From Treponema sp. (GTDB lineage: Bacteria; Spirochaetota; Spirochaetia; Treponematales; Treponemataceae), in assembly GCA_017617145.1 (NCBI GenBank), contig JAFZWX010000094.1, positions 1-11,941 on the forward strand: a stretch of DNA of 11,941 nucleotides. Reading direction: 5' to 3'. Both the position numbers and the translations under genes were made by a program. Below the pieces are notes generated by a model. The model was given only the letters and a program-made list of their open reading frames with translations, was not told where the DNA came from and searched no databases. Shown one piece after another: positions 96 to 8,932 of this stretch (its first letter is position 1; each line of letters starts with the position of its first letter).

Positions 96-111
96 CATAA
101 CAGAAGAAACT

Positions 112-185
112 TGTCCGAAAACTTTTTGACGGCGAACGAACTTCCTTTTCGTCCTGTTCGTTCGCTGGCAAAAAGTTTTCGGACA
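112..185. repeat. Large hairpin H1 with conserved tip, between ddl and the left edge
   Basis: The outer arms are perfect over 17 bp (112-128 with 169-185), followed by a 3x3 mismatch (ACG/TGG), then a perfect 10-bp inner stem (132-141 with 156-165), closing a 14-nt loop at 142-155. The loop is TTCCTTTTCGTCCT on the plus strand and AGGACGAAAAGGAA on the minus strand. The loop, and the AAC/GTT pairs closing it, recur exactly in the hairpin at 1368-1441, while the outer stems differ. On the plus strand a T5 run follows the stem, so it could also terminate plus-strand transcription. ddl is read on the minus strand, so the purine loop would be in the ddl mRNA tail. Confidence 0.85.
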
Positions 186-203
186 TTTTTGTTTGCATAT
201 CTT

Positions 204-1334
204 TTATCTGCTTGTACTAAGTTTTTGTTTTGCCTCGTACCTAGCTACAGCTTCTTTGATTAACAGATCTACCAGTGCTTCAAACTTCAATCCCGCTGCA
301 TCACACATCTTAGGGAACATGCTTATAGGCGTAAAGCCTGGCATTGTATTAATTTCGTTCAGATAAACCTGTTTTGTGTTTTTATCAATAAAGAAATCTA
401 CTCGCGAAAGACCTGTCGCATCCAAAACCTTGTAGGCGGCACAGGCTGTCTTGCGGATTTTTTCAAGATCATTTTCTGTAAGCTCTGCAGGAATTAAAAG
501 GTTTGCGCCGTCAGGGTCGTTGTATTTTGCATCAAAATCATAAAAATCATGATTTGGAACAATTTCACCAGGAATATAGGCGACTACAGCTTCATCATCA
601 TTGTCGGCTGGGAATGTAACAGAGTTTCCTGTAACAGAACATTCAATTTCGCGTGCATTATCCAGAGATTTTTCTACTAAAACTTTGTCATCCCAATTAA
701 AGGCTTCCATAATTGCATAGCCAAGTTCCTTTCGGTTCTTTGCCTTTGAGGCTCCGTTTGAACTTCCTGCACAACAAGGCTTTACAAACATAGGATATCC
801 AAGTTCTTTTTCGGTTTCTTCAATTACTGCGTCATAAACAATGCTGTCTAAAACAACGCTTCGCTTTATGCACACATAAGGAACAACAGGAAGACCAACG
901 CTCTGCCAGATCATTTTTGTCTTTTCTTTATCCATTGTAATTGCAGAAGAAAGATGGGTACAGCCTATATAAGGAATGTCTGCCATTTCAAAAAGTCCCT
1001 GAATAGTTCCGTCTTCGCCATAAGTTCCGTGAAGGGCAGGGAAAACTACATCAATGTCTAAAGGCTTTCCACCTGCAACAAAGGCATGCTTACCGCCTGC
1101 AGGAACAATGGTCACTGCTTTTGCTTCATCTTCTTTTATAGTAAGAACGGCTTTTGTATCCTTGCAGATTCTTTCATATTCAGAATCATCCTGAAGATAC
1201 CATTTTCCACTTTTTGTTATACCAATTAAAATAACTTTGTTTTCTTTACTAATGCCGTTTGCAATTGCCGCTGCCGAAATAAGGCTAACTTCATGCTCTC
1301 CAGAACGACCCCCGTATATAACTGCTATGTTCAT
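204..1334 (-). CDS. ddl: D-alanine--D-alanine ligase
   Basis: This ATP-grasp ligase joins two D-alanines in the cytoplasm for the end of the peptidoglycan stem peptide. The 376 aa are usual for the longer Ddl subgroup. Visible motifs are GGRSGEHEVS at 8-17, HGTYGEDGTIQG at 102-113, GSSNG at 190-194, the omega-loop segment HDFYDFDAKY at 262-271 and LNEINTMPGFT at 325-335. D313, E327 and N329 are the expected magnesium ligands. Tyr265 sits where D-Ala-D-Ala ligases carry tyrosine, rather than the histidine of VanA-type D-Ala-D-Lac ligases, so a D-Ala-D-Ala product is expected. It lies 106 bp downstream of murE in the same direction and has its own Shine-Dalgarno AAGGAG (1348-1343), 8 nt from the ATG. 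A large hairpin lies between the two genes, so expression may be partly independent of murE. Confidence 0.96.
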   Translation of the reverse strand: MNIAVIYGGRSGEHEVSLISAAAIANGISKENKVILIGITKSGKWYLQDDSEYERICKDTKAVLTIKEDEAKAVTIVPAGGKHAFVAGGKPLDIDVVFPALHGTYGEDGTIQGLFEMADIPYIGCTHLSSAITMDKEKTKMIWQSVGLPVVPYVCIKRSVVLDSIVYDAVIEETEKELGYPMFVKPCCAGSSNGASKAKNRKELGYAIMEAFNWDDKVLVEKSLDNAREIECSVTGNSVTFPADNDDEAVVAYIPGEIVPNHDFYDFDAKYNDPDGANLLIPAELTENDLEKIRKTACAAYKVLDATGLSRVDFFIDKNTKQVYLNEINTMPGFTPISMFPKMCDAAGLKFEALVDLLIKEAVARYEAKQKLSTSR

Positions 1335-1342
1335 GTAAAAAA

Positions 1343-1362
1343 CTCCTTATAAGTAAATGATA
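1343..1362 (-). promoter_or_regulatory. ddl ribosome binding site and possible -10 box
   Basis: AAGGAG at 1348-1343 lies 8 nt before the ddl ATG and decides that start. TATCAT at 1362-1357, just upstream, matches TATAAT in 5 of 6 positions and could be a ddl promoter placed directly after the hairpin at 1368-1441. No good -35 box is visible, so the promoter part is weak. Confidence 0.5.
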
Positions 1363-1367
1363 CTGTT

Positions 1368-1441
1368 GCGGCGAAAATTTGCTGGCTGTGAACAAACTTC
1401 CTTTTCGTCCTGTTTGTTCACGGACAGCAAATTTTTGACGC
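1368..1441. repeat. Large hairpin H2 with conserved tip, between murE and ddl
   Basis: The outer arms (1368-1383 with 1426-1441) pair with one G-T wobble and one mismatch. A short imperfect segment (GGCT/GGAC) follows, then a perfect 10-bp inner stem (1388-1397 with 1412-1421) around a 14-nt loop at 1398-1411. The loop is identical to that of the hairpin at 112-185 although the outer stem differs. The structure begins at the last base of the murE stop codon. Both neighbours are on the minus strand, so the RNA loop would be AGGACGAAAAGGAA. No T tract follows on the minus strand, so simple termination is doubtful. An RNA-processing, attenuation or protein-binding role is possible but unproven. 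Confidence 0.85.
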
Positions 1442-3195
1442 TATGATATTATTTCCTTTAATGCCTTTTTTGCTTCGCTTATTTCATCATAAGGCATTGT
1501 GTAATCCTTGTAAATTATGCTGTTTTCGTGCGACTTTCCAAGCAGAAGGACAATGTCTCCTTTTTGTGCCATTTTGAAGGTCTCGCGGATTGCCTGTGGC
1601 CTGTCGTGAATTATAAAAAGATTTTCACCCATGACCTTGCCTTCTTTAATTGCTCCTTCTGCAATCATTTTAAGAAGTTCTACCGGATCTTCTCCACGAG
1701 GGTCTTCATCTGCAAGAACAATTACATCACAGAACTTTGCTGCAATCTGTCCCTGAAGCGGGCGCTTTGTAAGGTCGCGTTCTCCGCCACTTCCAAACAA
1801 GGCAAAAATTCTTCCGCTGCAACGTTTTCGTATTGGAGGAAAAATTGTTTCAAAGCTTGAAGGTGTGTGCGCGTAATCAACAATCAGTTCAAAAGGCTGA
1901 CCTTCATCAATTACTGTCATGCGGCCTTTTATTGGTGTGAGTTCTGGAACATGTGCAGCAACCTGTTCAAAGCTCAAGTTTGTTACACTGCTTACTGCTG
2001 TAATTGCAGCCATAAGATTATAGGCATTGAATGCACCAGGTAGCGATGCCCTTACAGAAAATCGAGTTCGAGGTCGTGGCTGAACAGGATCATAATTTTC
2101 CGGATAAACAGCATTTTCGCCGTCGGCATCTACATCAAAGGTAAGTCCATAAGTTGCCGCTGCAATGTTACGTGCAGTCATATAGCGAAGATTATCTGGA
2201 ATTGGTGGAAGCGGTGTAGCATTGCTGCCAGTTTCTGCAGCTGCTTTGCCTGCTTTTCCTTCAGTTGTAAAACCATAAACAGGATGCTTTGTTGCTTCAA
2301 TAAAATATTGAGCCGAAGGATCTTCAAGATTTACAATTCCAATTGAATTGATTTTCTGTTTTTCACCGGCAATTGTTTTTATATGATTATGCTTGTCTAA
2401 CGCACGGAAAAGATTTGCCTTGTCACTGCGATAAGTTTCGAAGTTTTTGTGGAACTCAAGATGTTCCAGTGTAACATTCATAAAACAGCCGCAATCAAAC
2501 AGAATATTACCACAACGGTTGAGCTTTGTTGAAAGTCCGTGTGAAGAGGTTTCTACAACTGCATATTTACAACCATTTTCGAGCATTTTATTTAAGTGAT
2601 GCTGAATAATCGGTGCTTCGGGTGTAGTCTGATGCTGAGGGTTTGGAAGGGCATCTTCGCCAAAGGAATATTCTACAGTAGAAATAAAGCCTGCTTTTTG
2701 TCCGCATGCACGAAGCAACTGCCAGATAAAACTTACTGTACTTGATTTTCCCTCTGTACCTGTAACGCCAATTACAATGAGTCGTTCACTAGGATTATCA
2801 TAAAAGCGGGCAGAAAGCGGTGCCATGGCAAAACGGGCATCTGGAACATTTATAAGCGCTGGAGCAAACTTTGGAGCTTCATCCGAAAGAGCGTTGTTCA
2901 TTGTTCTTTTGATTATTGCTTCTGCAACATCTTGCTGCTGGGAAGGGGTAAGCTTCCCTTGAAAGACAACAGCATTTGCACCGGCTAAAATTGCCTGTTC
3001 AATATAATTATTGCCGTCTGTGTGAGTTCCTGGAAGTGCAAAAAATAATGAATCCTTTGTAACTTCGCGGGAATCAAATACAAGGTTGGTAACTGGAATA
3101 TCATTTATTTCCGATAAATCATCTATTTTAGTGCCATCTGCCGCCACCACTGCGTTCTGAAACGCCGGCAGAATCTGCGAAAGAAGTTTTTTCAT
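1441..3195 (-). CDS. murE: UDP-MurNAc-tripeptide synthetase (MurE-type ligase)
   Basis: This cytoplasmic ATP-dependent Mur ligase adds the third residue to UDP-MurNAc-L-Ala-D-Glu. The start chosen is the ATG at 3195 (584 aa), because a TATAAT box ends 7 nt upstream. A GTG two codons earlier (3201) gives 586 aa and is the numbering used here. Motifs: ATP loop GVTGTEGKSST 145-155, TTPE 192-195, ETSSHGL 217-223, HLEFHKNFETYRSDKANLF with carbamylated-lysine candidate K261, VDYAHTP 441-447, GSGGERDLTKRP 470-481 and DEDPRGEDP 498-506. The protein is about 90 aa longer than the roughly 495 aa of E. coli MurE. Much of the surplus lies near 285-380, with an Ala/Gly/Pro-rich stretch. The third-residue specificity motif reads EDPR rather than DNPR, so DAP, lysine and ornithine remain open. 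T. pallidum peptidoglycan is known to contain ornithine. It is divergent from queD and upstream of ddl. Confidence 0.95.
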   Translation of the reverse strand: MKKLLSQILPAFQNAVVAADGTKIDDLSEINDIPVTNLVFDSREVTKDSLFFALPGTHTDGNNYIEQAILAGANAVVFQGKLTPSQQQDVAEAIIKRTMNNALSDEAPKFAPALINVPDARFAMAPLSARFYDNPSERLIVIGVTGTEGKSSTVSFIWQLLRACGQKAGFISTVEYSFGEDALPNPQHQTTPEAPIIQHHLNKMLENGCKYAVVETSSHGLSTKLNRCGNILFDCGCFMNVTLEHLEFHKNFETYRSDKANLFRALDKHNHIKTIAGEKQKINSIGIVNLEDPSAQYFIEATKHPVYGFTTEGKAGKAAAETGSNATPLPPIPDNLRYMTARNIAAATYGLTFDVDADGENAVYPENYDPVQPRPRTRFSVRASLPGAFNAYNLMAAITAVSSVTNLSFEQVAAHVPELTPIKGRMTVIDEGQPFELIVDYAHTPSSFETIFPPIRKRCSGRIFALFGSGGERDLTKRPLQGQIAAKFCDVIVLADEDPRGEDPVELLKMIAEGAIKEGKVMGENLFIIHDRPQAIRETFKMAQKGDIVLLLGKSHENSIIYKDYTMPYDEISEAKKALKEIIS

Positions 3196-3202
3196 AACCA
3201 CT

Positions 3203-3230
3203 ATTATAACCGTTTGCGCAAAAATATAAA
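3203..3230 (-). promoter_or_regulatory. murE promoter, leaderless type
   Basis: On the minus strand a perfect TATAAT (3208-3203) is followed by AGTGGTT and then ATG at 3195, so transcription would start at about the first base of the codon. TTTATA (3230-3225, 4/6) lies 16 nt upstream as a weak -35. There is no Shine-Dalgarno sequence. The two divergent promoters share this 46-bp gap, and TTTGCGCAAA, a perfect 10-bp palindrome, sits at 3213-3222 between the two -10 boxes. Confidence 0.6.
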
Positions 3231-3241
3231 AGTGATATAAT
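3214..3241 (+). promoter_or_regulatory. queD promoter, leaderless type
   Basis: A perfect TATAAT (3236-3241) is followed by CAAACT and the queD ATG at 3248. The weak -35 candidate TTGCGC (3214-3219, 3/6) is 16 nt upstream. No Shine-Dalgarno sequence fits in the 6-nt interval, and the interval is far too short for a preQ1 riboswitch. Confidence 0.6.
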
Positions 3242-3247
3242 CAAACT

Positions 3248-3652
3248 ATGTTCGAAGTACGCGTTACAGCCGATTTTTCTGCGGCTCATTTTTTACAGGA
3301 TTACAACGGTAAGTGCGAAAACTTACACGGTCACAATTATAAAGTTTATGCTCATGTTCGTGGCCCAAAACTCAACGAAGGTGGAATGCTTCTGGATTTT
3401 ACTAAGTTAAAGAAAGCACTTCGTGAAGTCTGCGGGCAGTTAGATCACACTAACTTAAATGATTTTTCTGTATTCAAAAGTAATCCAAGTGCCGAACGCA
3501 TAGCAATGTATATTTACAATGGGGTAGTGGAACTGCTAAAAAAAGAGGGAATTGACCTTTCATATGAAGCAGGTAAACAAGAGCCTGCCCTTTATTGCGT
3601 AGATGTTTTTGAGACAGAGACCTCACGCGCAAGATACAGAGTTGATGAGTAA
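3248..3652 (+). CDS. queD: 6-carboxy-5,6,7,8-tetrahydropterin synthase (QueD / PTPS family)
   Basis: This zinc enzyme converts 7,8-dihydroneopterin triphosphate to 6-carboxytetrahydropterin, an early step toward preQ0 and queuosine. The 134 aa match the compact bacterial family. Visible features are zinc ligands H14 (FSAAH), H27 and H29 (LHGHNY), catalytic C23 (GKCEN), the D66-H67 pair (LDHTNLND) and the pterin anchor E122 (FETETSR). The ATG at 3248 starts 6 nt after a TATAAT box, so the mRNA is probably leaderless. No other queuosine gene is in the window. Its TAA ends 2 bp before the stop of convergent hisF with no room for a terminator. A PTPS-like activity on another pterin is the alternative, but the Cys-Glu-Asn signature near the zinc site favours QueD. 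Confidence 0.93.
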   Translation: MFEVRVTADFSAAHFLQDYNGKCENLHGHNYKVYAHVRGPKLNEGGMLLDFTKLKKALREVCGQLDHTNLNDFSVFKSNPSAERIAMYIYNGVVELLKKEGIDLSYEAGKQEPALYCVDVFETETSRARYRVDE

Positions 3653-3654
3653 TT

Positions 3655-4419
3655 CTACATCCTCATAGGAATACCGTCTTTCGCTAATTCATTTTTAATC
3701 TGACCAACAGTATAAGTTCCGTTATGAACCATACTTGCAATTAGAGCTGCATCTGCTTTGCCTTCTGTAAGCACGTCTGCCAGGTGTTGTGGAGTTCCGC
3801 CGCCGCCGCTTGCAATTACAGGAACAGGAACGTTTTCAGAAATCAGTCTTGTCAACTCAATATCGTAGCCGTTTTTAGTTCCGTCGGCATCCATGGAGTT
3901 TAAGACAATTTCGCCGGCACCAAGTTCTACACCACGTTTTGCCCATTCTAGAGCGTCCAGGCCTGTGTCTACGCGACCTCCGTTTATTGTTGTGCCAAAG
4001 CCGCTTGGTTTTGTAGGGTCGCGTCTAACGTCCATTCCAAGAACAATACTCTGGTTGCCGAATACTCGTGCTCCTTCTGTAATAAGTCCAGGGTTACGTA
4101 CCGCTTGTGAGTTCAGCGAAACTTTTTCGGCACCGGCAAGAATTGTAGAACGGATATCTTCAATTGTTCCAATTCCACCGCCTACGCAGAAGGGAATAAA
4201 AACCTGCTGGGCAACGCGTGAAATTAAATCAAGAATTGGTCCACGACCACGAGCACTGGCAATGATATCATAAAAAACAAGCTCGTCTACACCCTGGCGG
4301 TAATATTCAGCAGCCATTTCAACTGGGTCGCCAATATCTATATTATTCTGAAATTTTACGCCTTTTGTTGTTCGTCCGTCTTTTACATCAAGACAGATTA
4401 TAATTCGTTTTTTTAGCAT
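3655..4419 (-). CDS. hisF: Imidazole glycerol phosphate synthase, cyclase subunit
   Basis: This (beta/alpha)8 barrel uses ammonia from HisH to turn PRFAR into imidazole glycerol phosphate and AICAR, linking histidine and purine synthesis. The 254 aa are the normal length. The catalytic aspartates are present as D11 (ICLDVKDG) and D130 (LGMDV), and the phosphate-binding turns as CVGGGIG at 78-84 and ASGGGG at 203-208. K19 in TTKGVKF and the conserved aspartates argue against the HisF-like sugar aminotransfer homologue WbuZ. Its ATG lies within the end of hisH, sharing 7 bp (ATGCTAA), and GGAG in the hisH 3' end acts as Shine-Dalgarno, so translation is probably coupled. No other his gene is present nearby. 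Confidence 0.94.
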   Translation of the reverse strand: MLKKRIIICLDVKDGRTTKGVKFQNNIDIGDPVEMAAEYYRQGVDELVFYDIIASARGRGPILDLISRVAQQVFIPFCVGGGIGTIEDIRSTILAGAEKVSLNSQAVRNPGLITEGARVFGNQSIVLGMDVRRDPTKPSGFGTTINGGRVDTGLDALEWAKRGVELGAGEIVLNSMDADGTKNGYDIELTRLISENVPVPVIASGGGGTPQHLADVLTEGKADAALIASMVHNGTYTVGQIKNELAKDGIPMRM

Positions 4420-5042
4420 TTGCAGAAATTCTCCAGTATCTTTATTCCCATTTCACCACTTTTTTCGGGATGGAATTGGGTTGCAAAAACATTCCCGCTC
4501 TGAATTACAGCAGGAATTTTTATTCCATAATCTGAACTTGCTTTTACGATTGTTGTGTCTGTCGGACAGATTACATAGGAGTGAACAAAATAAACATCAA
4601 AATTATTGTTTATTCCTGCAAGCAAAGGACAGTCTCCGTTTTCAAAACTGATATTATTCCAGCCCATATGAGGAACCTTAAGATTTTGTTTTTTCAATTC
4701 GGGATTAATTGAGTAAACATGTTTTATTTCGCCTTTTAAAAGTCCAAGACATTCTGTGTTACCTTCTTCTGAATGTTCAAAAATAATTTGAGAACCTACA
4801 CAAATTCCAAAAAGAAGTTTACCGGCTTTAACTTGTTCACGAACAAAAATATCAAATCCGCTTGCCTTGAGCTGACTCATTGCATATGCATCATCGCCGT
4901 CTCCCGGGAACATAAATCTGTCGCAATTAGCTTCAGCAAGTTCTTGTGGATTTTTTGAAGCGACATAAGGAATGTTCAGATATTCAAGGGCACGTTCGAG
5001 GCTTGTAATATTTCCCGCATTAAAATCAATAATTCCAACCAT
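4413..5042 (-). CDS. hisH: Imidazole glycerol phosphate synthase, glutaminase subunit
   Basis: This class I glutamine amidotransferase releases ammonia for HisF. Starting at the ATG at 5042 it has 209 aa beginning MVGIIDFNAGN, the normal HisH N-terminus. The open frame continues upstream to 5411 but that part is low-complexity Ser/Phe-rich and antisense to another gene. The triad is visible as C81 (FGICVGSQ), H191 and E193 (QFHPEKSG). The segment FVHSY is at 152-156. The oxyanion-strand segment reads PGDGDDAYAM at 46-55, where HisH usually has a PGVGAFGDAM-like sequence, a modest divergence. TATAAT ends 7 nt before the ATG and no Shine-Dalgarno is seen. It is first in the hisH-hisF pair. Confidence 0.92.
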   Translation of the reverse strand: MVGIIDFNAGNITSLERALEYLNIPYVASKNPQELAEANCDRFMFPGDGDDAYAMSQLKASGFDIFVREQVKAGKLLFGICVGSQIIFEHSEEGNTECLGLLKGEIKHVYSINPELKKQNLKVPHMGWNNISFENGDCPLLAGINNNFDVYFVHSYVICPTDTTIVKASSDYGIKIPAVIQSGNVFATQFHPEKSGEMGIKILENFCKC

Positions 5043-5049
5043 ACAAATG

Positions 5050-5078
5050 ATTATAAAAAAAAACTTTGATATTGGGAA
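5050..5078 (-). promoter_or_regulatory. hisH promoter, leaderless type
   Basis: On the minus strand TTCCCA (5078-5073, 4/6), a 17-nt spacer containing eight consecutive T, and a perfect TATAAT (5055-5050) are followed by CATTTGT and the hisH ATG at 5042. It is interleaved with the divergent promoter of the gene at 5101. Confidence 0.6.
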
Positions 5079-5094
5079 GATTCTTTCCGATAAT
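5066..5094 (+). promoter_or_regulatory. Promoter of the 72-aa membrane protein gene, leaderless type
   Basis: TTGATA (5066-5071, 5/6), a 17-nt spacer and GATAAT (5089-5094, 5/6) are followed by AGAATT and the ATG at 5101. This is the best -35/-10 pair in the window, and it supports reading the other -10-to-ATG arrangements as true leaderless promoters. Confidence 0.65.
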
Positions 5095-5100
5095 AGAATT

Positions 5101-5319
5101 ATGAAATTCAAAGAAATTCTTGGTATTATTGGTGCTGTTCTCAAAGACTGGCGTGTTATTGTTACTCTTATTGCCATGCTTTTTGTTATGGGAGCCACCA
5201 ATTTTATATTAAAATACAAAAAGAAACCGAAAAAACAGAAGAAAGAAAAAGCAGCCGCTCCAGCTCCAAAAAAAGAAGAAAAGAAAGAAGAGAAAGAAGG
5301 GGAAGAAGCGAAAGAATAA
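5101..5319 (+). CDS. Small membrane protein with charged Lys/Glu-rich tail, unknown function
   Basis: I do not recognise this 72-aa protein. It has a short amphipathic N-terminus, one transmembrane segment at about 18-37 (VIVTLIAMLFVMGATNFIL), then a strongly basic stretch (KYKKKPKKQKKEK) and an Ala/Pro and Glu/Lys-rich tail to the end. By the positive-inside rule the charged tail is probably cytoplasmic. The open frame extends upstream to 4972, but that overlaps hisH antisense, and the promoter at 5066-5094 fixes the ATG at 5101. A hairpin at 5339-5406 follows it directly. A role as a membrane anchor or nucleic-acid or protein contact is only a guess. Confidence 0.7.
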   Translation: MKFKEILGIIGAVLKDWRVIVTLIAMLFVMGATNFILKYKKKPKKQKKEKAAAPAPKKEEKKEEKEGEEAKE

Positions 5320-5338
5320 AAAAATTGTTTTAAAGGTA

Positions 5339-5406
5339 CGGGCGATTTGCTTGCACCACGCAAACGGGACGAAGAGGATGTTTGCGTGTCACAAGCAAAT
5401 CGCCCG
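5339..5406 (+). terminator. Large hairpin H3 with conserved tip, terminator-like, after the 72-aa gene
   Basis: A perfect 15-bp outer stem (5339-5353 with 5392-5406), a 3x3 internal loop (CAC/TCA) and a perfect 9-bp inner stem (5357-5365 with 5380-5388) close a 14-nt loop at 5366-5379, GGGACGAAGAGGAT. This matches the minus-strand loop of the hairpins at 112-185 and 1368-1441 at 11 of 14 positions, but in the opposite orientation on the chromosome. Both neighbours here are on the plus strand, so the purine loop is again in the RNA. AAATTGTT upstream and AACAATTT just downstream can extend pairing. A U-rich tract follows, so termination of the 5101-5319 transcript is likely. Confidence 0.85.
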
Positions 5407-5539
5407 AACAATTTATTTTTCTTTTTTTATTTCTTACATTATTTCATCTTTTTCTTTGTATTTATCCTTTTTTTTCTCTTTTTTTTCAAATCCCCCCAAA
5501 AAACTTCCTCTTTTAACAAAAAATTTTGTTAACTATAGT
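5407..5539 (+). promoter_or_regulatory. Pyrimidine-rich recQ upstream region with palindrome
   Basis: These 133 bases are mostly T and C on the plus strand, with runs of up to eight T, a C6 and an A6. At 5513-5532 there is a perfect palindrome with 9-bp arms TTAACAAAA/TTTTGTTAA around AA. TATAGT (5534-5539, 5/6 to TATAAT) directly abuts the recQ ATG, which would place transcription start inside the gene, so the true recQ promoter is unclear. There is no Shine-Dalgarno sequence. The palindrome could be an operator. Confidence 0.4.
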
Positions 5540-7063
5540 ATGGAAAATCTTAATATTGATGAAGGTGACTGGATTTATGAGGATGATCCGGTGGCTAAGG
5601 CGGCTTATGTTAATTTTGGCATAAGGTACATGTTTCCGTGGCAGAGACTGGTTGTTTCTAACATTATGGAAGCTTACGAGAACTGGCGGTCGGGTGTTGC
5701 TGGTGAAATTGCCCTTGCACAAGATAACGATGCTTTTTGTAAAGGACGACAGATTGTGCTTTTACCTACGGGGGCAGGTAAATCCTTGTGTTTCCAGGTA
5801 CCGGCGCTGTTGCTCGACGGGCCTTCGCTTGTAATTTATCCACTCCTTGCTCTTATGACAGATCAACAGAGGAGAATGGAAGAGGGAAGTTTACGTAGTG
5901 TAACATTCCGGGGTGGACAGACAGAAGCAGAACGCTCTGAATGCTTTGCCAAAATCAAAGGCGGGGCGAAAATTATTCTTGCAAATCCAGAGGTTCTTCA
6001 AAGTAAAAAACTTATACAACAACTTAAAGAAGTTGGAATAAAGCATATTGCAATTGACGAAGCACATTGTGTTTCTGAATGGGGCGATACATTCAGACCT
6101 TCATATCTTGGACTTGGAGAAGTTATAAACGAGCTTAATCCTCCTGTTATTACTGCATTTACAGCAACAGCTTCCCCTCCAGTCCTTGCACGTGTTTCGG
6201 AAATTTTATTTGGTGGACAGGCTCACATTGTTCGCAGCGAAAGCGACAGACAGAATATTCATTATTTTGTACGGCGCGCTGCTGTAAAGAAAAAAATGGC
6301 TTTGGAGCTTGCCGCCACAGAACAACGCCCAATGATTATTTTTTGTGGCACTCGTGGAAAAAGTGAAGACATGGCTCGTGAATTAAACTTTTGTTTTGGA
6401 CGTGGTACAGCTCAGTATTACCACGCGGGACTTAAAAAATCAGAAAAAGAAGCAGTAGAACAATGGTTTTACCAGAGCAAAGAAGGAATTCTTTGTGCCA
6501 CATGCGCTTATGGAATGGGTGTGGACAAAAAGGATATAAAAACTGTAGTTCACCTTGAAGCGTCTGCAACGGCTGAAGCGTATATTCAGGAAGCGGGTCG
6601 TGGCGGCAGGGATGGCAGTGTAGCAAAAGCAATTCTTTTATGGAGTTTACAAGATAGTCTTGATTATTCTGTGTATAAACCAGGTTCACGCGAGGCAGCT
6701 CTACGTGATTTTGCCGAAACAACTTCATGCAGACGACAGGTTTTGCTTGATGCACTGGGTGCAGAACAGGCAGTATGCAGTGGTTGTGATATTTGCAACG
6801 GAAAAAAATATCCTACAAGCGACTGGGAACTGGTACAAAAACTCATAAAGCGAAACCCGCATTTTTATTCCAAAGACGAAATCGCCGAAGAACTTTCTTA
6901 CAAAATGAATACAACCTTTAGAAAAGTCCTTGGCTTGAACATCTGGGAACACAATGACAGCGTTTCAGTAATAGATCAGCTCATGAAATCTGGTCGCATT
7001 CTGGTAGATAAATTTTTGTGGAGAAATAAACTGTATGTATTACGAAATAGAAAAGTTGTATAA
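5540..7063 (+). CDS. recQ: RecQ family ATP-dependent DNA helicase
   Basis: This is a 3'-5' superfamily 2 helicase of recombination and fork repair. The ATG at 5540 gives 507 aa. The frame is open back to 5351, but that part runs through the hairpin and T-rich spacer and reads as low-complexity Phe/Ser. Motifs: I PTGAGKS 76-82, II DEAH 173-176, III TAT 208-210, IV IIFCGTRGKSE 266-276, V CAYGMGVDK 322-330 and VI QEAGRGGRDG 350-359. The RecQ zinc site is C397, C413, C416 and C419. Beyond it only about 85 residues remain, a short winged-helix-like tail without recognisable HRDC domain (E. coli RecQ has about 610 aa). About 25 extra residues lie between the FPWQ motif and motif I. The TAA at 7061-7063 falls inside the left arm of the next hairpin. 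Confidence 0.93.
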   Translation: MENLNIDEGDWIYEDDPVAKAAYVNFGIRYMFPWQRLVVSNIMEAYENWRSGVAGEIALAQDNDAFCKGRQIVLLPTGAGKSLCFQVPALLLDGPSLVIYPLLALMTDQQRRMEEGSLRSVTFRGGQTEAERSECFAKIKGGAKIILANPEVLQSKKLIQQLKEVGIKHIAIDEAHCVSEWGDTFRPSYLGLGEVINELNPPVITAFTATASPPVLARVSEILFGGQAHIVRSESDRQNIHYFVRRAAVKKKMALELAATEQRPMIIFCGTRGKSEDMARELNFCFGRGTAQYYHAGLKKSEKEAVEQWFYQSKEGILCATCAYGMGVDKKDIKTVVHLEASATAEAYIQEAGRGGRDGSVAKAILLWSLQDSLDYSVYKPGSREAALRDFAETTSCRRQVLLDALGAEQAVCSGCDICNGKKYPTSDWELVQKLIKRNPHFYSKDEIAEELSYKMNTTFRKVLGLNIWEHNDSVSVIDQLMKSGRILVDKFLWRNKLYVLRNRKVV

Positions 7064-7150
7064 AAAATGCGGAGCGGAGTTTTGGGTTTTGCGGAACGCC
7101 CTCTTCGTTTAGTGGAGCAAAACACAAAACTTCGCGGGAGCCTTTTTTAT
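7060..7150. terminator. Large hairpin H4, bidirectional terminator between recQ and the OmpA gene
   Basis: The outer arms ATAAAAAA/TTTTTTAT (7060-7067 with 7143-7150) give T6 runs on both strands, as in a shared terminator for convergent genes. Inside, GC/GC pairs, an asymmetric GGA/GGGA internal loop (7071-7073, 7136-7139), then a long stem (about 7074-7092 with 7117-7135, one wobble, one mismatch) lead through a GGA/GGA bulge and two AC/GT pairs to a 14-nt loop at 7098-7111. On the minus strand the loop is TAAACGAAGAGGGC, which shares the ACGAAGAGG core with the hairpin at 5339-5406. It overlaps the recQ stop codon and ends 12 bp from the stop of the convergent gene. Confidence 0.85.
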
Positions 7151-7161
7151 GCAGGCCTGTT

Positions 7162-8364
7162 TTAATCCATAATGGTTATTTCTACACGACGATTCTTGGC
7201 GCGCCCTTCTTCTGTGTTGTTGCTTGCTACCGGCTCTTTGGAACCCTTGCCCTGAGTAAAGATATGATATTCATCGCGGACTCCAAGCCCAATAAGGTAA
7301 GATGCAACTGCTTCAGCACGTTCTTCGGAAAGTTTCTGACGTGCACTTGCAGTTCCACGGTCTGCACAATGACCAGTTATTAAAAGATCATTGGAATATT
7401 GCTTCAAAAGTTCACCGATTTTCTTAAGCTTTAGTTTTTCGCTTTCCAAAAGAACATCAGAATCTGGTTCAAACTGAATATTATCAAGACTGATTGTAAG
7501 TCCTTTTTCACCTTTTTTTACAGAAATATTTTCGAGTTTAAGTTTATCAAAGGTATCCTGCAGTTGTTTTGCAGTAGAATCGTCATTAAGTGAACTGAAC
7601 TCTGTAAGTTCTGCGTGGGCTGTACCGGTATACACAAAAAGGTTTCCGTAAATATCCAGGATTTTAATAAGGAATTCTTCATCATAATGATCAAGGAGTC
7701 CTTTGTTGTTATCCCAATAAAGAGTCTGCTTTGACCAACCAACAGATTGATAAAGTGTCTGTCCTGCATTCAGCTGTTCGTCGGTTGCTTCGTACGAAAA
7801 ATCATAATCAACAAGAATGACATTCAGCTTTTTACCGTCTATGGTTGTATCTTCTTTATAGGTGTAGTTTGCTTCAAAAGGAAAAATGAGTGCTTTATCC
7901 ATAACAAAGCCTTTACTCACATCCTGAACTTCTTTTCCTTTTGCAGTCCAGGTTTCGCCAATCTTTACCTTTTTATCAGGGAAAACCGGAACATTGCGTA
8001 CGGTTGGCATATAAATATCATCGGAAATTGTGAGTTCGCCGTTTTTTTTGCGCGAAAATACAGAGGTTGTTTCTTCGCCCCAGCTAAGAATTCTGCCTGT
8101 CTGCTGGCTGATTGAATTTTCTGTTGTCATGTAAGTGGCATAAATAAAGGCTTCTCCATCGCTTGCAACATTTGTCATTTTAGAAGAAATGCGGTTGATG
8201 ATTTCGGCATGATGACTTGGAACATTATTTACGTAAACATCTTCTTCTACAGTAGAAATATAACTGCCGGAATTGCCCTTTTTCTGCTTGAATTCGAATT
8301 TTACCTGAGCAGAAAGGGTTGCAGCAAGGAATACTAAAGCTAAAATAAAAACTGTTTTTTTCAT
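7162..8364 (-). CDS. Exported protein with C-terminal OmpA peptidoglycan-binding domain
   Basis: This is probably a periplasmic or outer-membrane-associated protein that holds peptidoglycan. Of its 400 aa, residues 1-19 form a signal peptide (MKKTVFILALVFLAATLSA, then Q), typical of signal peptidase I and without a lipobox cysteine. Residues about 20-260 are a mixed, beta-rich region I do not recognise. A short linker with coiled-coil tendency (262-278) leads to the OmpA domain at about 285-400, with TGHCADRGT 330-338, LSEERAEAVASYL 345-357 and GRAKNRRVEI 387-396. D335 and R388 fit the residues that bind diaminopimelate or its replacement. Whether the domain prefers ornithine-containing peptidoglycan cannot be seen. 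Shine-Dalgarno AGAGGA is 6 nt from the ATG. Confidence 0.88.
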   Translation of the reverse strand: MKKTVFILALVFLAATLSAQVKFEFKQKKGNSGSYISTVEEDVYVNNVPSHHAEIINRISSKMTNVASDGEAFIYATYMTTENSISQQTGRILSWGEETTSVFSRKKNGELTISDDIYMPTVRNVPVFPDKKVKIGETWTAKGKEVQDVSKGFVMDKALIFPFEANYTYKEDTTIDGKKLNVILVDYDFSYEATDEQLNAGQTLYQSVGWSKQTLYWDNNKGLLDHYDEEFLIKILDIYGNLFVYTGTAHAELTEFSSLNDDSTAKQLQDTFDKLKLENISVKKGEKGLTISLDNIQFEPDSDVLLESEKLKLKKIGELLKQYSNDLLITGHCADRGTASARQKLSEERAEAVASYLIGLGVRDEYHIFTQGKGSKEPVASNNTEEGRAKNRRVEITIMD

Positions 8365-8370
8365 AAAAAA

Positions 8371-8412
8371 TCCTCTATAATTCTATTATGTTAAACAATA
8401 TTTCTATAACAA
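8371..8412 (-). promoter_or_regulatory. Promoter and ribosome binding site of the OmpA-domain gene
   Basis: On the minus strand TTGTTA (8412-8407, 4/6), a 16-nt spacer and CATAAT (8390-8385, 5/6) precede AGAGGA (8376-8371), which is 6 nt from the ATG at 8364. Transcription would start near 8378, giving a short leader with Shine-Dalgarno. The promoter lies inside the start of the divergent gene at 8388, so the two genes probably influence each other. Confidence 0.5.
8376..8381 (+). promoter_or_regulatory. -10 box of the nuclease-like gene, leaderless type
   Basis: A perfect TATAAT is followed by TCTATT and the ATG at 8388. No convincing -35 box was found at 16-18 nt. No Shine-Dalgarno sequence fits in the interval. 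Confidence 0.5.
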
Positions 8413-8786
8413 CGTTACTTTTACTTTTCGTCATTTTTTTGCTGGTACTTTTGATAATTTTTCAAGAGATTAGAATAAAAATTAAGCTTAAGAAAATCCG
8501 TCAGGATGCCGTAAAACGCTCAAATGCAGTAAAAGGCGGCCAGCTTGCCGAACAATTAGCCCCATTTCTGCCAAATTTTCCATGTAACCCCGCTGATGCC
8601 CACTTTTTAGGCCAGCCCATAGATTATATAGCCTTCCCAGGTCTTTGCGAAAAAGGCAGTGTAGATGAAATATTATTAATAGAAGTAAAAACAGGCGTGT
8701 CACAGTTGTCACAAAGAGAAAAAGGTATACGCGAAGCTGTAGAAAAAGGAAGAATACGCTATATCGAATACAGAATCAATCCTTAA
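8388..8786 (+). CDS. Membrane-anchored Holliday-junction-resolvase-related endonuclease (PF10107-like)
   Basis: The 132-aa protein has one transmembrane segment at about 8-27, a basic linker (29-45) and a compact domain at 46-130. The order GQPIDYIAF 75-83, ILLIEVKTG 95-103, LSQREKGIREAVEKGRIRYIEYRI 107-130 fits the family described as endonucleases related to archaeal Holliday junction resolvases, from memory of its motif pattern. D79, E99 and K101 form a PD-(D/E)xK-type site, with Q109 or E111 as further candidates. The family's true substrate is poorly known, and the membrane anchor points to DNA handled near the membrane. Activity is an inference. The TAA is followed after about 55 bp by the hairpin at 8842-8932. 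Confidence 0.75.
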   Translation: MLNNISITTLLLLFVIFLLVLLIIFQEIRIKIKLKKIRQDAVKRSNAVKGGQLAEQLAPFLPNFPCNPADAHFLGQPIDYIAFPGLCEKGSVDEILLIEVKTGVSQLSQREKGIREAVEKGRIRYIEYRINP

Positions 8787-8841
8787 TTAATAAACTCCGG
8801 TAAAAGATTTAGCAGACGAATAAAAACTAAAGTAGCCATTT

Positions 8842-8932
8842 GAAAAATCTGAGTTACGGAGTAGAAAAAAAACTCGGACAACTTCTTTCTGTTGGCCGAG
8901 TTTTTTTTCTACGGGAGTAACTCAGATTTTTC
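8842..8932. terminator. Very long hairpin H5, bidirectional terminator between the nuclease-like gene and potD
   Basis: A perfect 16-bp outer stem (8842-8857 with 8917-8932), an asymmetric GGA/GGGA internal loop (8858-8860, 8913-8916), a perfect 17-bp stem with an A8/T8 run (8861-8877 with 8896-8912), an A-G mismatch and a CAAC/GTTG inner stem close an 8-nt loop TTCTTTCT at 8883-8890. On the minus strand the loop is AGAAAGAA, a shorter and looser relative of the 14-nt loop in the other hairpins. T5 runs are in the outer arms on both strands, suitable for ending both convergent transcripts. The GGA/GGGA loop is shared with the hairpin at 7060-7150. Confidence 0.9.

What the first reader, a model, noticed from the sequence alone, without database searches (positions are those of the whole stretch)
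112..8932. A family of intergenic hairpins with conserved tips and unrelated stems
Hairpins at 112-185, 1368-1441, 5339-5406 and 7060-7150 each end in a 14-nt loop. Written in the purine orientation the loops are AGGACGAAAAGGAA (twice, identical), GGGACGAAGAGGAT and TAAACGAAGAGGGC, so ACGAARAGG is shared by all four. AC/GT pairs close all four (AAC/GTT in three), and a mismatched block separates inner and outer stem. The outer stems share no sequence yet pair almost perfectly. In a dispersed mobile repeat the stem would also be conserved. In ordinary terminators the loop would vary. Conserved loop plus compensated variable stems suggests selection on a presented tip, for example for an RNA-binding protein, a processing enzyme or an antisense RNA. 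The hairpin at 8842-8932 has a shorter AGAAAGAA loop and may be a degenerate member.
Basis: partly seen in the sequence, partly recalled or inferred. Interest (0 to 1): 0.75.

Follow-up and report, generated by a model that had tools for sequence, protein, structure and literature searches.

The report
Dispersed hairpin repeats with tagged loops
The hairpins are copies of small, dispersed hairpin-forming DNA repeats in Treponema bacteria whose loop is the most conserved part and differs between related genomes, as if something in each cell reads it.

Summary
ACGAARAGG occurs four times in the window against 0.12 expected, each time in the loop of a hairpin with nearly perfect stems. H1-H3 are class A, an ~85-bp dispersed palindromic repeat whose outer stems share a weak but real consensus. 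H4 is class B, another repeat (34 and 16 pattern matches in two genomes of the family). H5 is a third architecture without the motif. Class A is lineage-restricted: 22 copies in close relative G002, 1-3 matches in 12 other genomes, none at E<=0.01 in 261 of 274. Five of six G002 copies examined are absent from every relative in which the site could be compared. New facts: the loop follows a genome dialect (position 11 G in 25/25 copies of window+G002, T in 9/9 of G001/G003/G004), also at orthologous hairpins; stems drift by paired changes; mismatches and folding energies place the maintained fold on the pyrimidine-loop strand, whichever way the gene runs. That disfavours an mRNA tip. Best reading: REP/MITE-like hairpins whose loop is read in trans, probably as single-stranded DNA; the factor is unidentified.

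The parts
108..189 (-). H1, class A hairpin (core 112-185), loop AGGACGAAAAGGAA on the minus strand, just after the ddl stop
   Evidence: orthologous hairpin with compensated stem in L012/L217
1364..1445 (-). H2, class A hairpin (core 1368-1441), loop AGGACGAAAAGGAA, between murE stop and ddl start; absent in L001, L002, L009, L012 and L023
5332..5413 (+). H3, class A hairpin (core 5339-5406), loop GGGACGAAGAGGAT, downstream of a 72-aa ORF and upstream of a RecQ-like helicase; absent in L001, L002, L012 and L023
7063..7146 (-). H4, class B hairpin, loop TAAACGAAGAGGGC, between convergent helicase and OmpA-like genes, T tracts on both sides
8842..8932 (-). H5, class C hairpin (TCCC/TCC internal loop, loop AGAAAGAA without the motif), between two convergent genes
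204..1334 (-). D-alanine-D-alanine ligase (ddl), neighbour of H1 and H2
   Evidence: PF07478, PF01820
1441..3201 (-). Mur ligase (murE-like), upstream of H2
   Evidence: PF08245, PF02875
5101..5319 (+). 72-aa ORF upstream of H3 (weak PF04277, just under its cut-off)
5540..7063 (+). RecQ-like DEAD-box helicase between H3 and H4 (the RecQ name is my reading; Pfam gives DEAD and Helicase_C)
7162..8364 (-). OmpA-domain protein; the purine-loop strand of H4 is its strand

Best explanation
H1-H3 are copies of one ~85-bp dispersed palindromic repeat (class A); H4 is a copy of a second (class B); H5 is a third architecture (class C). They are REP/MITE-like hairpins that come and go at gene ends. SHOWN: repeat-family membership, lineage-restricted amplification, gain/absence at orthologous sites, paired stem divergence, a loop more conserved than any stem, genome-specific loop dialects in class A, and a better fold on the pyrimidine-loop strand regardless of gene direction. 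INFERRED: the hairpin of that strand is recognised by its loop, in trans, most likely as single-stranded DNA by a recombination or mobilising protein, and that factor sets the dialect; stems only have to present the loop. The factor is not identified.
For: Family and restriction: tip model R2 gives 22 matches in G002, 3 in G003, 3 in G004, 2 in G001, 1-2 in nine others (five of these weak), none at E<=0.01 in 261 of 274 family genomes, and only G002 at E<=1e-4 among 296 genomes drawn from the phylum. Class B pattern (up to 3 mismatches): 34 matches in G234, 16 in G034, 3 in G001, 2 in G002, 1 in G014; reversed control 1 hit in all. Turnover: H2 and H3 sites empty in L001, L002, L012, L023; of 6 G002 copies examined, L247 is shared with G003 and G004 and five are absent wherever comparable. 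Pairing. Dialect: loop position 11 is G in 22/22 (G002) and 3/3 (window class A), T in 2/2, 4/4 and 3/3 (G001, G003, G004); the five orthologous pairs compared all differ there in the same sense, and the class B pair L306/L230 differs at 8 of 14 loop positions with 4 changed letters in 25 stem pairs. Strand: isolated stem mismatches on the purine-loop strand are A.C or C.T 19 against G.T 3, G.A 0 in 21 class A copies, and 16 against 1 in 26 class B copies; by copy 10 to 2 (1 tie) and 12 to 1. On the other strand these are G.T and G.A. That strand folds better in 23/27 A and 27/28 B (RNA), 25/27 and 28/28 (DNA).
Against: No transposase or recognition factor was found: Y1_Tnp PF01797 has no match in G001-G004 and G034. 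A purely mobile element does not explain why resident orthologous copies follow the host dialect. Class B loops in G001 do not follow its class A dialect (2 of 3 have G). Class A/C sits mostly at gene ends (30 of 33 by rough automated ORF calls), and among convergent copies with one clearly nearer stop the purine loop is on that gene's strand in 7 of 8, which could hint at an RNA role. Copies share ancestry, so counts overstate significance. No clean target duplication was demonstrated.
Confidence: 0.5

Rival explanations
1. One reading: the hairpins act as RNA in mRNA 3' ends; an RNA-binding protein, processing enzyme or antisense RNA reads the purine loop.
For: Loop conservation and compensated stems; purine-loop strand is the strand of the nearer stop in 7 of 8 convergent class A/C cases and of the upstream gene for H1, H2 and H3; genome dialects.
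Against: Tandem copies: 8 purine, 7 pyrimidine in the mRNA. In 9 of 9 tandem copies with the purine loop in the mRNA the other strand folds better; stem mismatches on the purine strand are A.C and C.T, rarely G.U. H4 lies between two convergent stops and the nearer one carries the pyrimidine loop; class B also lies between divergent starts (9 of 28 by rough ORF calls).
Confidence: 0.2
2. They are intrinsic terminators, amplified because they terminate both ways; the loop is a hitch-hiking relic of recent spread.
For: Class B has a run of at least four T at the end of the stem in 28/28 on one strand and 27/28 on the other; gene-end location; L001 and L002 have a plain small terminator-like hairpin at the H1 site.
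Against: Class A has such T runs in only 6/21 and 4/21. Under recent spread stems should be at least as alike as the loop; the loop is far more conserved, and orthologous loops differ by dialect in place.
Confidence: 0.17
3. REPs mobilised by a RAYT (IS200/IS605-type) transposase.
For: Palindromic form, gene-end location, strand-specific hairpin, patchy amplification.
Against: PF01797 without a match in G001-G004 and G034; GTAG at a base in only 2 of 21 A and 3 of 28 B. Draft genomes could miss a gene; G234 was not tested.
Confidence: 0.06
4. Lone integron attC sites recombined as folded bottom strand.
For: An integron integrase over its cut-off lies in G002 and G003 (TIGR02249); attC are strand-specific hairpins after stop codons (recalled).
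Against: R boxes (RYYYAAC/GTTRRRY) at the base in 0 of 21 A and 0 of 28 B; the conserved part is the tip, not the base; the integrase is also in G005 and G007, where R1 gives no hit below E 0.3, and is not over cut-off in G001, G004, G034, G234.
Confidence: 0.03

Closest known systems
Repetitive extragenic palindromes (REP), GTAG and CGTC super-families (PMC3733652: start of abstract in the listing, passages found by terms)
   Same: Dispersed palindromes, patchy between genomes, proposed to be mobile; CGTC repeats are reported from Spirochaetes and apparently lack a dedicated transposase.
   Different: REPs are 20-40 bp, mostly with short loops and a terminal tag; here 80-100 bp, a 14-nt conserved loop, no consistent GTAG/CGTC tag, no RAYT match.
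Repetitive and double hairpin elements of mitochondrial DNA (PMC2800124: passages found by terms)
   Same: Dispersed hairpin-forming elements in intergenic DNA, thought to spread.
   Different: In the sponge elements the stems are conserved and the loops vary; here the loop is conserved and the stems vary in pairs.
Integron attC sites (recalled; no paper read)
   Same: Folded single strand, structure conserved over sequence, placed just after stop codons.
   Different: Conserved R boxes at the base, absent here.
DNA uptake sequences with species dialects (recalled; one passage in PMC2267715, mentions uptake sequences forming terminator hairpins)
   Same: Genome-specific form of a short motif in terminator-like hairpins.
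   Different: Only tens of copies, motif in the loop and not in the stem; motif plus GTT is rarer than its reversed control in 12 of 12 genomes.

Membership tests
REP (GTAG/CGTC tagged, RAYT mobilised) | terminal GTAG or CGTC tag | tested here: not met
   GTAG 2/21 A, 3/28 B; CGTC 2/21 A, 0/28 B
REP (GTAG/CGTC tagged, RAYT mobilised) | Y1 tyrosine transposase in the genome | tested here: not met
   no match in G001-G004, G034; drafts, so absence is not final; G234 and the window genome not tested
REP/MITE-like dispersed palindromic repeat (broad sense) | many related palindromic copies at unrelated intergenic sites | tested here: met
REP/MITE-like dispersed palindromic repeat (broad sense) | presence/absence at orthologous sites | tested here: met
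REP/MITE-like dispersed palindromic repeat (broad sense) | target-site duplication | tested here: inconclusive
   by eye: flanks too diverged for a clean duplication; H2 has TATCAT on both sides, one case only
integron attC | RYYYAAC and GTTRRRY boxes at the hairpin base | tested here: not met
   0/21 A, 0/28 B
intrinsic terminator | T run directly after the stem | tested here: inconclusive
   class B 28/28 and 27/28; class A 6/21 and 4/21
known structured RNA family (Rfam) | match over gathering score | tested here: not met
   11 matches at E<=1 in the window, all under their gathering scores
mRNA-borne RNA motif | G.U tolerance on the transcribed strand | tested here: not met

The most novel reading that the evidence does not exclude
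The loop is a genome-specific recognition tag, read on the single strand with the pyrimidine loop by an unknown trans-acting factor; different hairpin scaffolds (A, B and C/D) have converged on, or exchange, the same kind of tag, and the tag is replaced in place at old sites when the factor's dialect changes. That would be a loop-addressed class of bacterial palindromic element.
Probability: 0.3. Interest if true: 0.72.

Novelty: new variant of a known kind. Interest (0 to 1): 0.5.

Why it matters
The dispersed bacterial palindromes that I found described are sorted by conserved stems and end tags (PMC3733652, passages). Here the apical loop is the conserved part, differs by genome, and differs in place at orthologous hairpins while stems stay or drift in pairs. 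If a trans-acting reader exists, these genomes offer dozens of natural sites and a dialect comparison with which to find it; the strand evidence makes single-stranded DNA recognition directly testable.

Tried and rejected
Rejected: conserved tip with wholly unrelated stems; RAYT-type REP; attC, although an integron integrase is present in G002 and G003 and no cassette hairpins beside it were seen in G002 (G003 not examined for this); CsrA site (loops such as TGGGCGAGTATGAA in L290 have no GGA, by eye; the GGA motif is recalled); uptake sequence. The IMG/VR pattern scan returned 120 stretches and stopped at its limit; these were not analysed, and that they are chance is an assumption. L313/L319 (class B) looked like an insertion into the tip but are a half hairpin abutting a gene end.

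Limits of the counts. Identity leaves out L251, L230 and L252 (stem shifted by one column); one search keeps them. One search was meant to leave them out but counted all 24 rows (A.C 11, C.T 9, G.T 3, G.A 0, A.A 1); one search recounts 21 rows (11, 8, 3, 0, 1). One search counted 29 class B copies (A.C 10, C.T 10, G.T 1, G.A 0, T.T 3); one search drops orthologues L321, L323 and the half-replaced L327. Class B sequences are those with a fetched locus, 28 plus H4, against 56 pattern matches; L313, L319 and duplicates in L311 were dropped. L245 (insertion in a stem arm) is not in the class A alignment but is. One search tested 4 of the 7 tandem pyrimidine copies (3 fold better on the pyrimidine strand) and 11 of 15 convergent ones (9 do); the others were left out for contig edges, doubtful ORFs or another architecture; H3 was added to the purine group by hand. 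Its loop expression accepts only G or T at position 11, and every copy listed matched. R2 was trained on copies found with R1, so their scores are by construction. In one search the weak hits L224, L267, L268, L269 and L275 have arm scores of 1-7 at the best motif match, which need not be the model hit; L266 (the same hairpin as L296) and L270 gave no line; L261 (G012) scores 12 and overlaps an ORF (L220).

Literature: (listings; one search shows 10 of 20,196) gave no description of this family; only open-licence PMC text is held, so this is no proof that it is not in print.
Full report
What the window is. A 12-kb stretch of a Treponema close to T. bryantii. The MurE search (80 stretches, the tool's maximum) gave 66 loci, 63 of them (L001-L063) with Treponema or Spirochaete titles, best 95% protein identity. 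No whole genome is held for the window. Neighbouring genes are ordinary: ddl, murE-like, a PTPS gene, two histidine-biosynthesis-type genes, a 72-aa ORF, a RecQ-like helicase, an OmpA-domain protein, an Endonuc_Holl protein, a solute-binding protein (gene names beyond the Pfam labels are my reading).

The observation. ACGAARAGG occurs 4 times against 0.12 expected (0 of 200 shuffles reach 4), each time in a hairpin loop. RNA z-scores run from -2.8 to -12.2. An unbiased search at score >=20 finds H1, H2, H3 and H5 against a mean of 0.01 in 100 shuffles; H4 scores lower. The same search over the 63 loci gave 24 hairpins (28 with the window), none with the exact motif; one in L012, at the H1 site, has a one-base variant.

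Empty sites. In L001, L002, L012 and L023 murE and ddl are a few bases apart or overlap, so H2 is absent; H3 is absent in the same four. At the H1 site L001 and L002 have a small hairpin with the same lower-stem letters, L012 a full hairpin with compensated changes, L023 another palindrome.

Architectures. A covariance model from H1-H3, L012 and one G002 copy (R1) found many copies in G002 (RGIG8175, the genome of L023). Class A: outer stem, 3x3 internal loop, inner stem, 14-nt loop. Class B (H4): GCTCCCGC, stem, GCTCC-RC-loop-GY-TCCGC, stem, GCTCCGC, T tracts both ways. Class C (H5, L012, L208, L253, L254): other internal loops, a CAAC/GTTG-closed tip in most. L288 and L289 combine a B/C-like base with the class A loop (by eye). 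A further set, D, in G008, G009 and G237 has loops GAGGCGAAGATGAT and GGGGCGAGAATGAT.

Distribution. Tip model R2 over 274 family genomes: 13 with a match at E<=0.01, G002 with 22 (stricter filters). The five genomes with matches only at E 0.003-0.01 (G027, G068, G162, G245, G268) gave no convincing hairpin. Over 296 genomes drawn from the phylum only G002 passes E<=1e-4 (G001, G003 and G004, which would pass, were evidently not drawn). Class B pattern with up to 3 mismatches: G234 34, G034 16, G001 3, G002 2, G014 1; the reversed control gave 1 hit in all.

Stems are related and covary. In 21 class A copies outer arms are 45% identical on average against 25% shuffled, inner arms 60% against 32%, loops 81% against 41%. 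In 24 rows 88% of 597 cells pair; covariation 0.74 against 0.21 (0 of 500 shuffles) and at most 0.23 in slid controls. Over the first 25 arm positions of five orthologous pairs, two-sided changes number 0, 0, 8, 5, 1 and one-sided 1, 1, 1, 2, 2, with one other, for L247/L292, L252/L230, L250/L290, H1/L217 and L306/L230. Two pairs thus show strong compensation, three are nearly unchanged. Whether arms are corrected against each other as DNA is open.

Loop dialects. Position 11 is G in 22/22 G002 copies (classes A, C and mixed) and 3/3 window class A copies, T in 2/2 G001, 4/4 G003, 3/3 G004. All five orthologous pairs differ there in the same sense; two of them are neighbouring hairpins at one place, so they are not fully independent. 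The class B pair has 8 of 14 loop letters changed while 22 of 25 stem pairs are identical. Against a strict rule: class B loops of G001 have G twice (L237, L307) and T once (L314).

Which strand. Isolated mismatches on the purine-loop strand: 21 class A copies 11 A.C, 8 C.T, 1 A.A, 3 G.T, 0 G.A; 26 class B copies 9 A.C, 7 C.T, 3 T.T, 1 G.T, 0 G.A. On the other strand these are mostly G.T and G.A, the better tolerated kinds. By copy, 10 to 2 with 1 tie in class A and 12 to 1 in class B; class A pooled p = 0.0009. Copies share ancestry, so p is only a guide. Folding energies agree: 23/27 A and 27/28 B as RNA, 25/27 and 28/28 as DNA; by context 9/9 tandem copies with the purine loop in the mRNA, 3/4 tested with the pyrimidine loop, 9/11 tested convergent copies. 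Selection on the mRNA strand would predict the opposite in the first group.

Position. By automated longest-ORF calls, which are rough, 30 of 33 class A/C elements adjoin a gene end (15 convergent, 15 tandem, 3 called divergent, one of these H3, which in fact follows the 72-aa ORF). Tandem orientation is 8 purine to 7 pyrimidine; in 7 of 8 convergent cases with a clearly nearer stop the purine loop is on that gene's strand. Class B: 15 tandem (9 pyrimidine, 6 purine), 4 convergent, 9 divergent of 28.

Turnover. Six class A copies in two G002 stretches were compared with G001, G003 and G004. L247 is shared with G003 and G004 (its region is missing in G001). L236 is absent in G001 and G004, where the two convergent genes overlap, and replaced by a CGTC-type palindrome in G003. 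L246 is replaced by CGTC-type palindromes in G003 and G004 (region missing in G001). L248 and L228, side by side, are absent in all three (4-9 bases instead of about 257). L233 is absent in G001 and G003 (no match there in G004).

Mechanism. The data call for a unit that spreads or is regained often, folds best on one defined strand independent of transcription, and whose loop follows a genome dialect. A factor that reads the loop on single-stranded DNA would explain all three; RAYT and integron integrase were tested as candidates and do not fit. In-place dialect difference at old sites means either continuing selection on resident copies or loop conversion; these are not distinguished. Novelty: a new variant of dispersed palindromic repeats; text searches found no description.

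Noticed in passing
L001 and L002 at the H5 site; L378 (G003), L386 (G003), L387 (G004): CGTCATTGCGAGC-type palindromes occupy gene ends in relatives, at two sites exactly where G002 has a class A hairpin; hotspot-like replacement of one palindrome family by another.
   Followed up: partly
L339:301-1509 (G002:C121), G003:C90:1326-2258, also G005 and G007: Integron integrase genes (TIGR02249 over cut-off) in Treponema drafts; beside the G002 gene no cassette array was seen.
   Followed up: partly
L340:6138-6548 (G003): A series of about 49-nt hairpin-like units (ACACGCGA...TCGCGTGT, unrelated middles, spacing 53-116), an array of unknown nature.
   Followed up: no
L313 and L319: Half of a class B hairpin, cut at the tip and abutting the stop codon of a large gene, conserved in G234 and G034.
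   Followed up: partly
L245 (G002:C32:3035-3158): Class A hairpin with about 40 extra bases in one arm of the inner stem, yet the outer stem still pairs.
   Followed up: no
L248 (G002:C44:3142-3361): Two class A hairpins side by side between convergent genes, each with its purine loop on the strand of the nearer gene, both absent in G001, G003, G004.
   Followed up: partly
L263, L264, L265 (G237, G009, G008): A fourth hairpin architecture (class D) with related loops and different internal loops.
   Followed up: no
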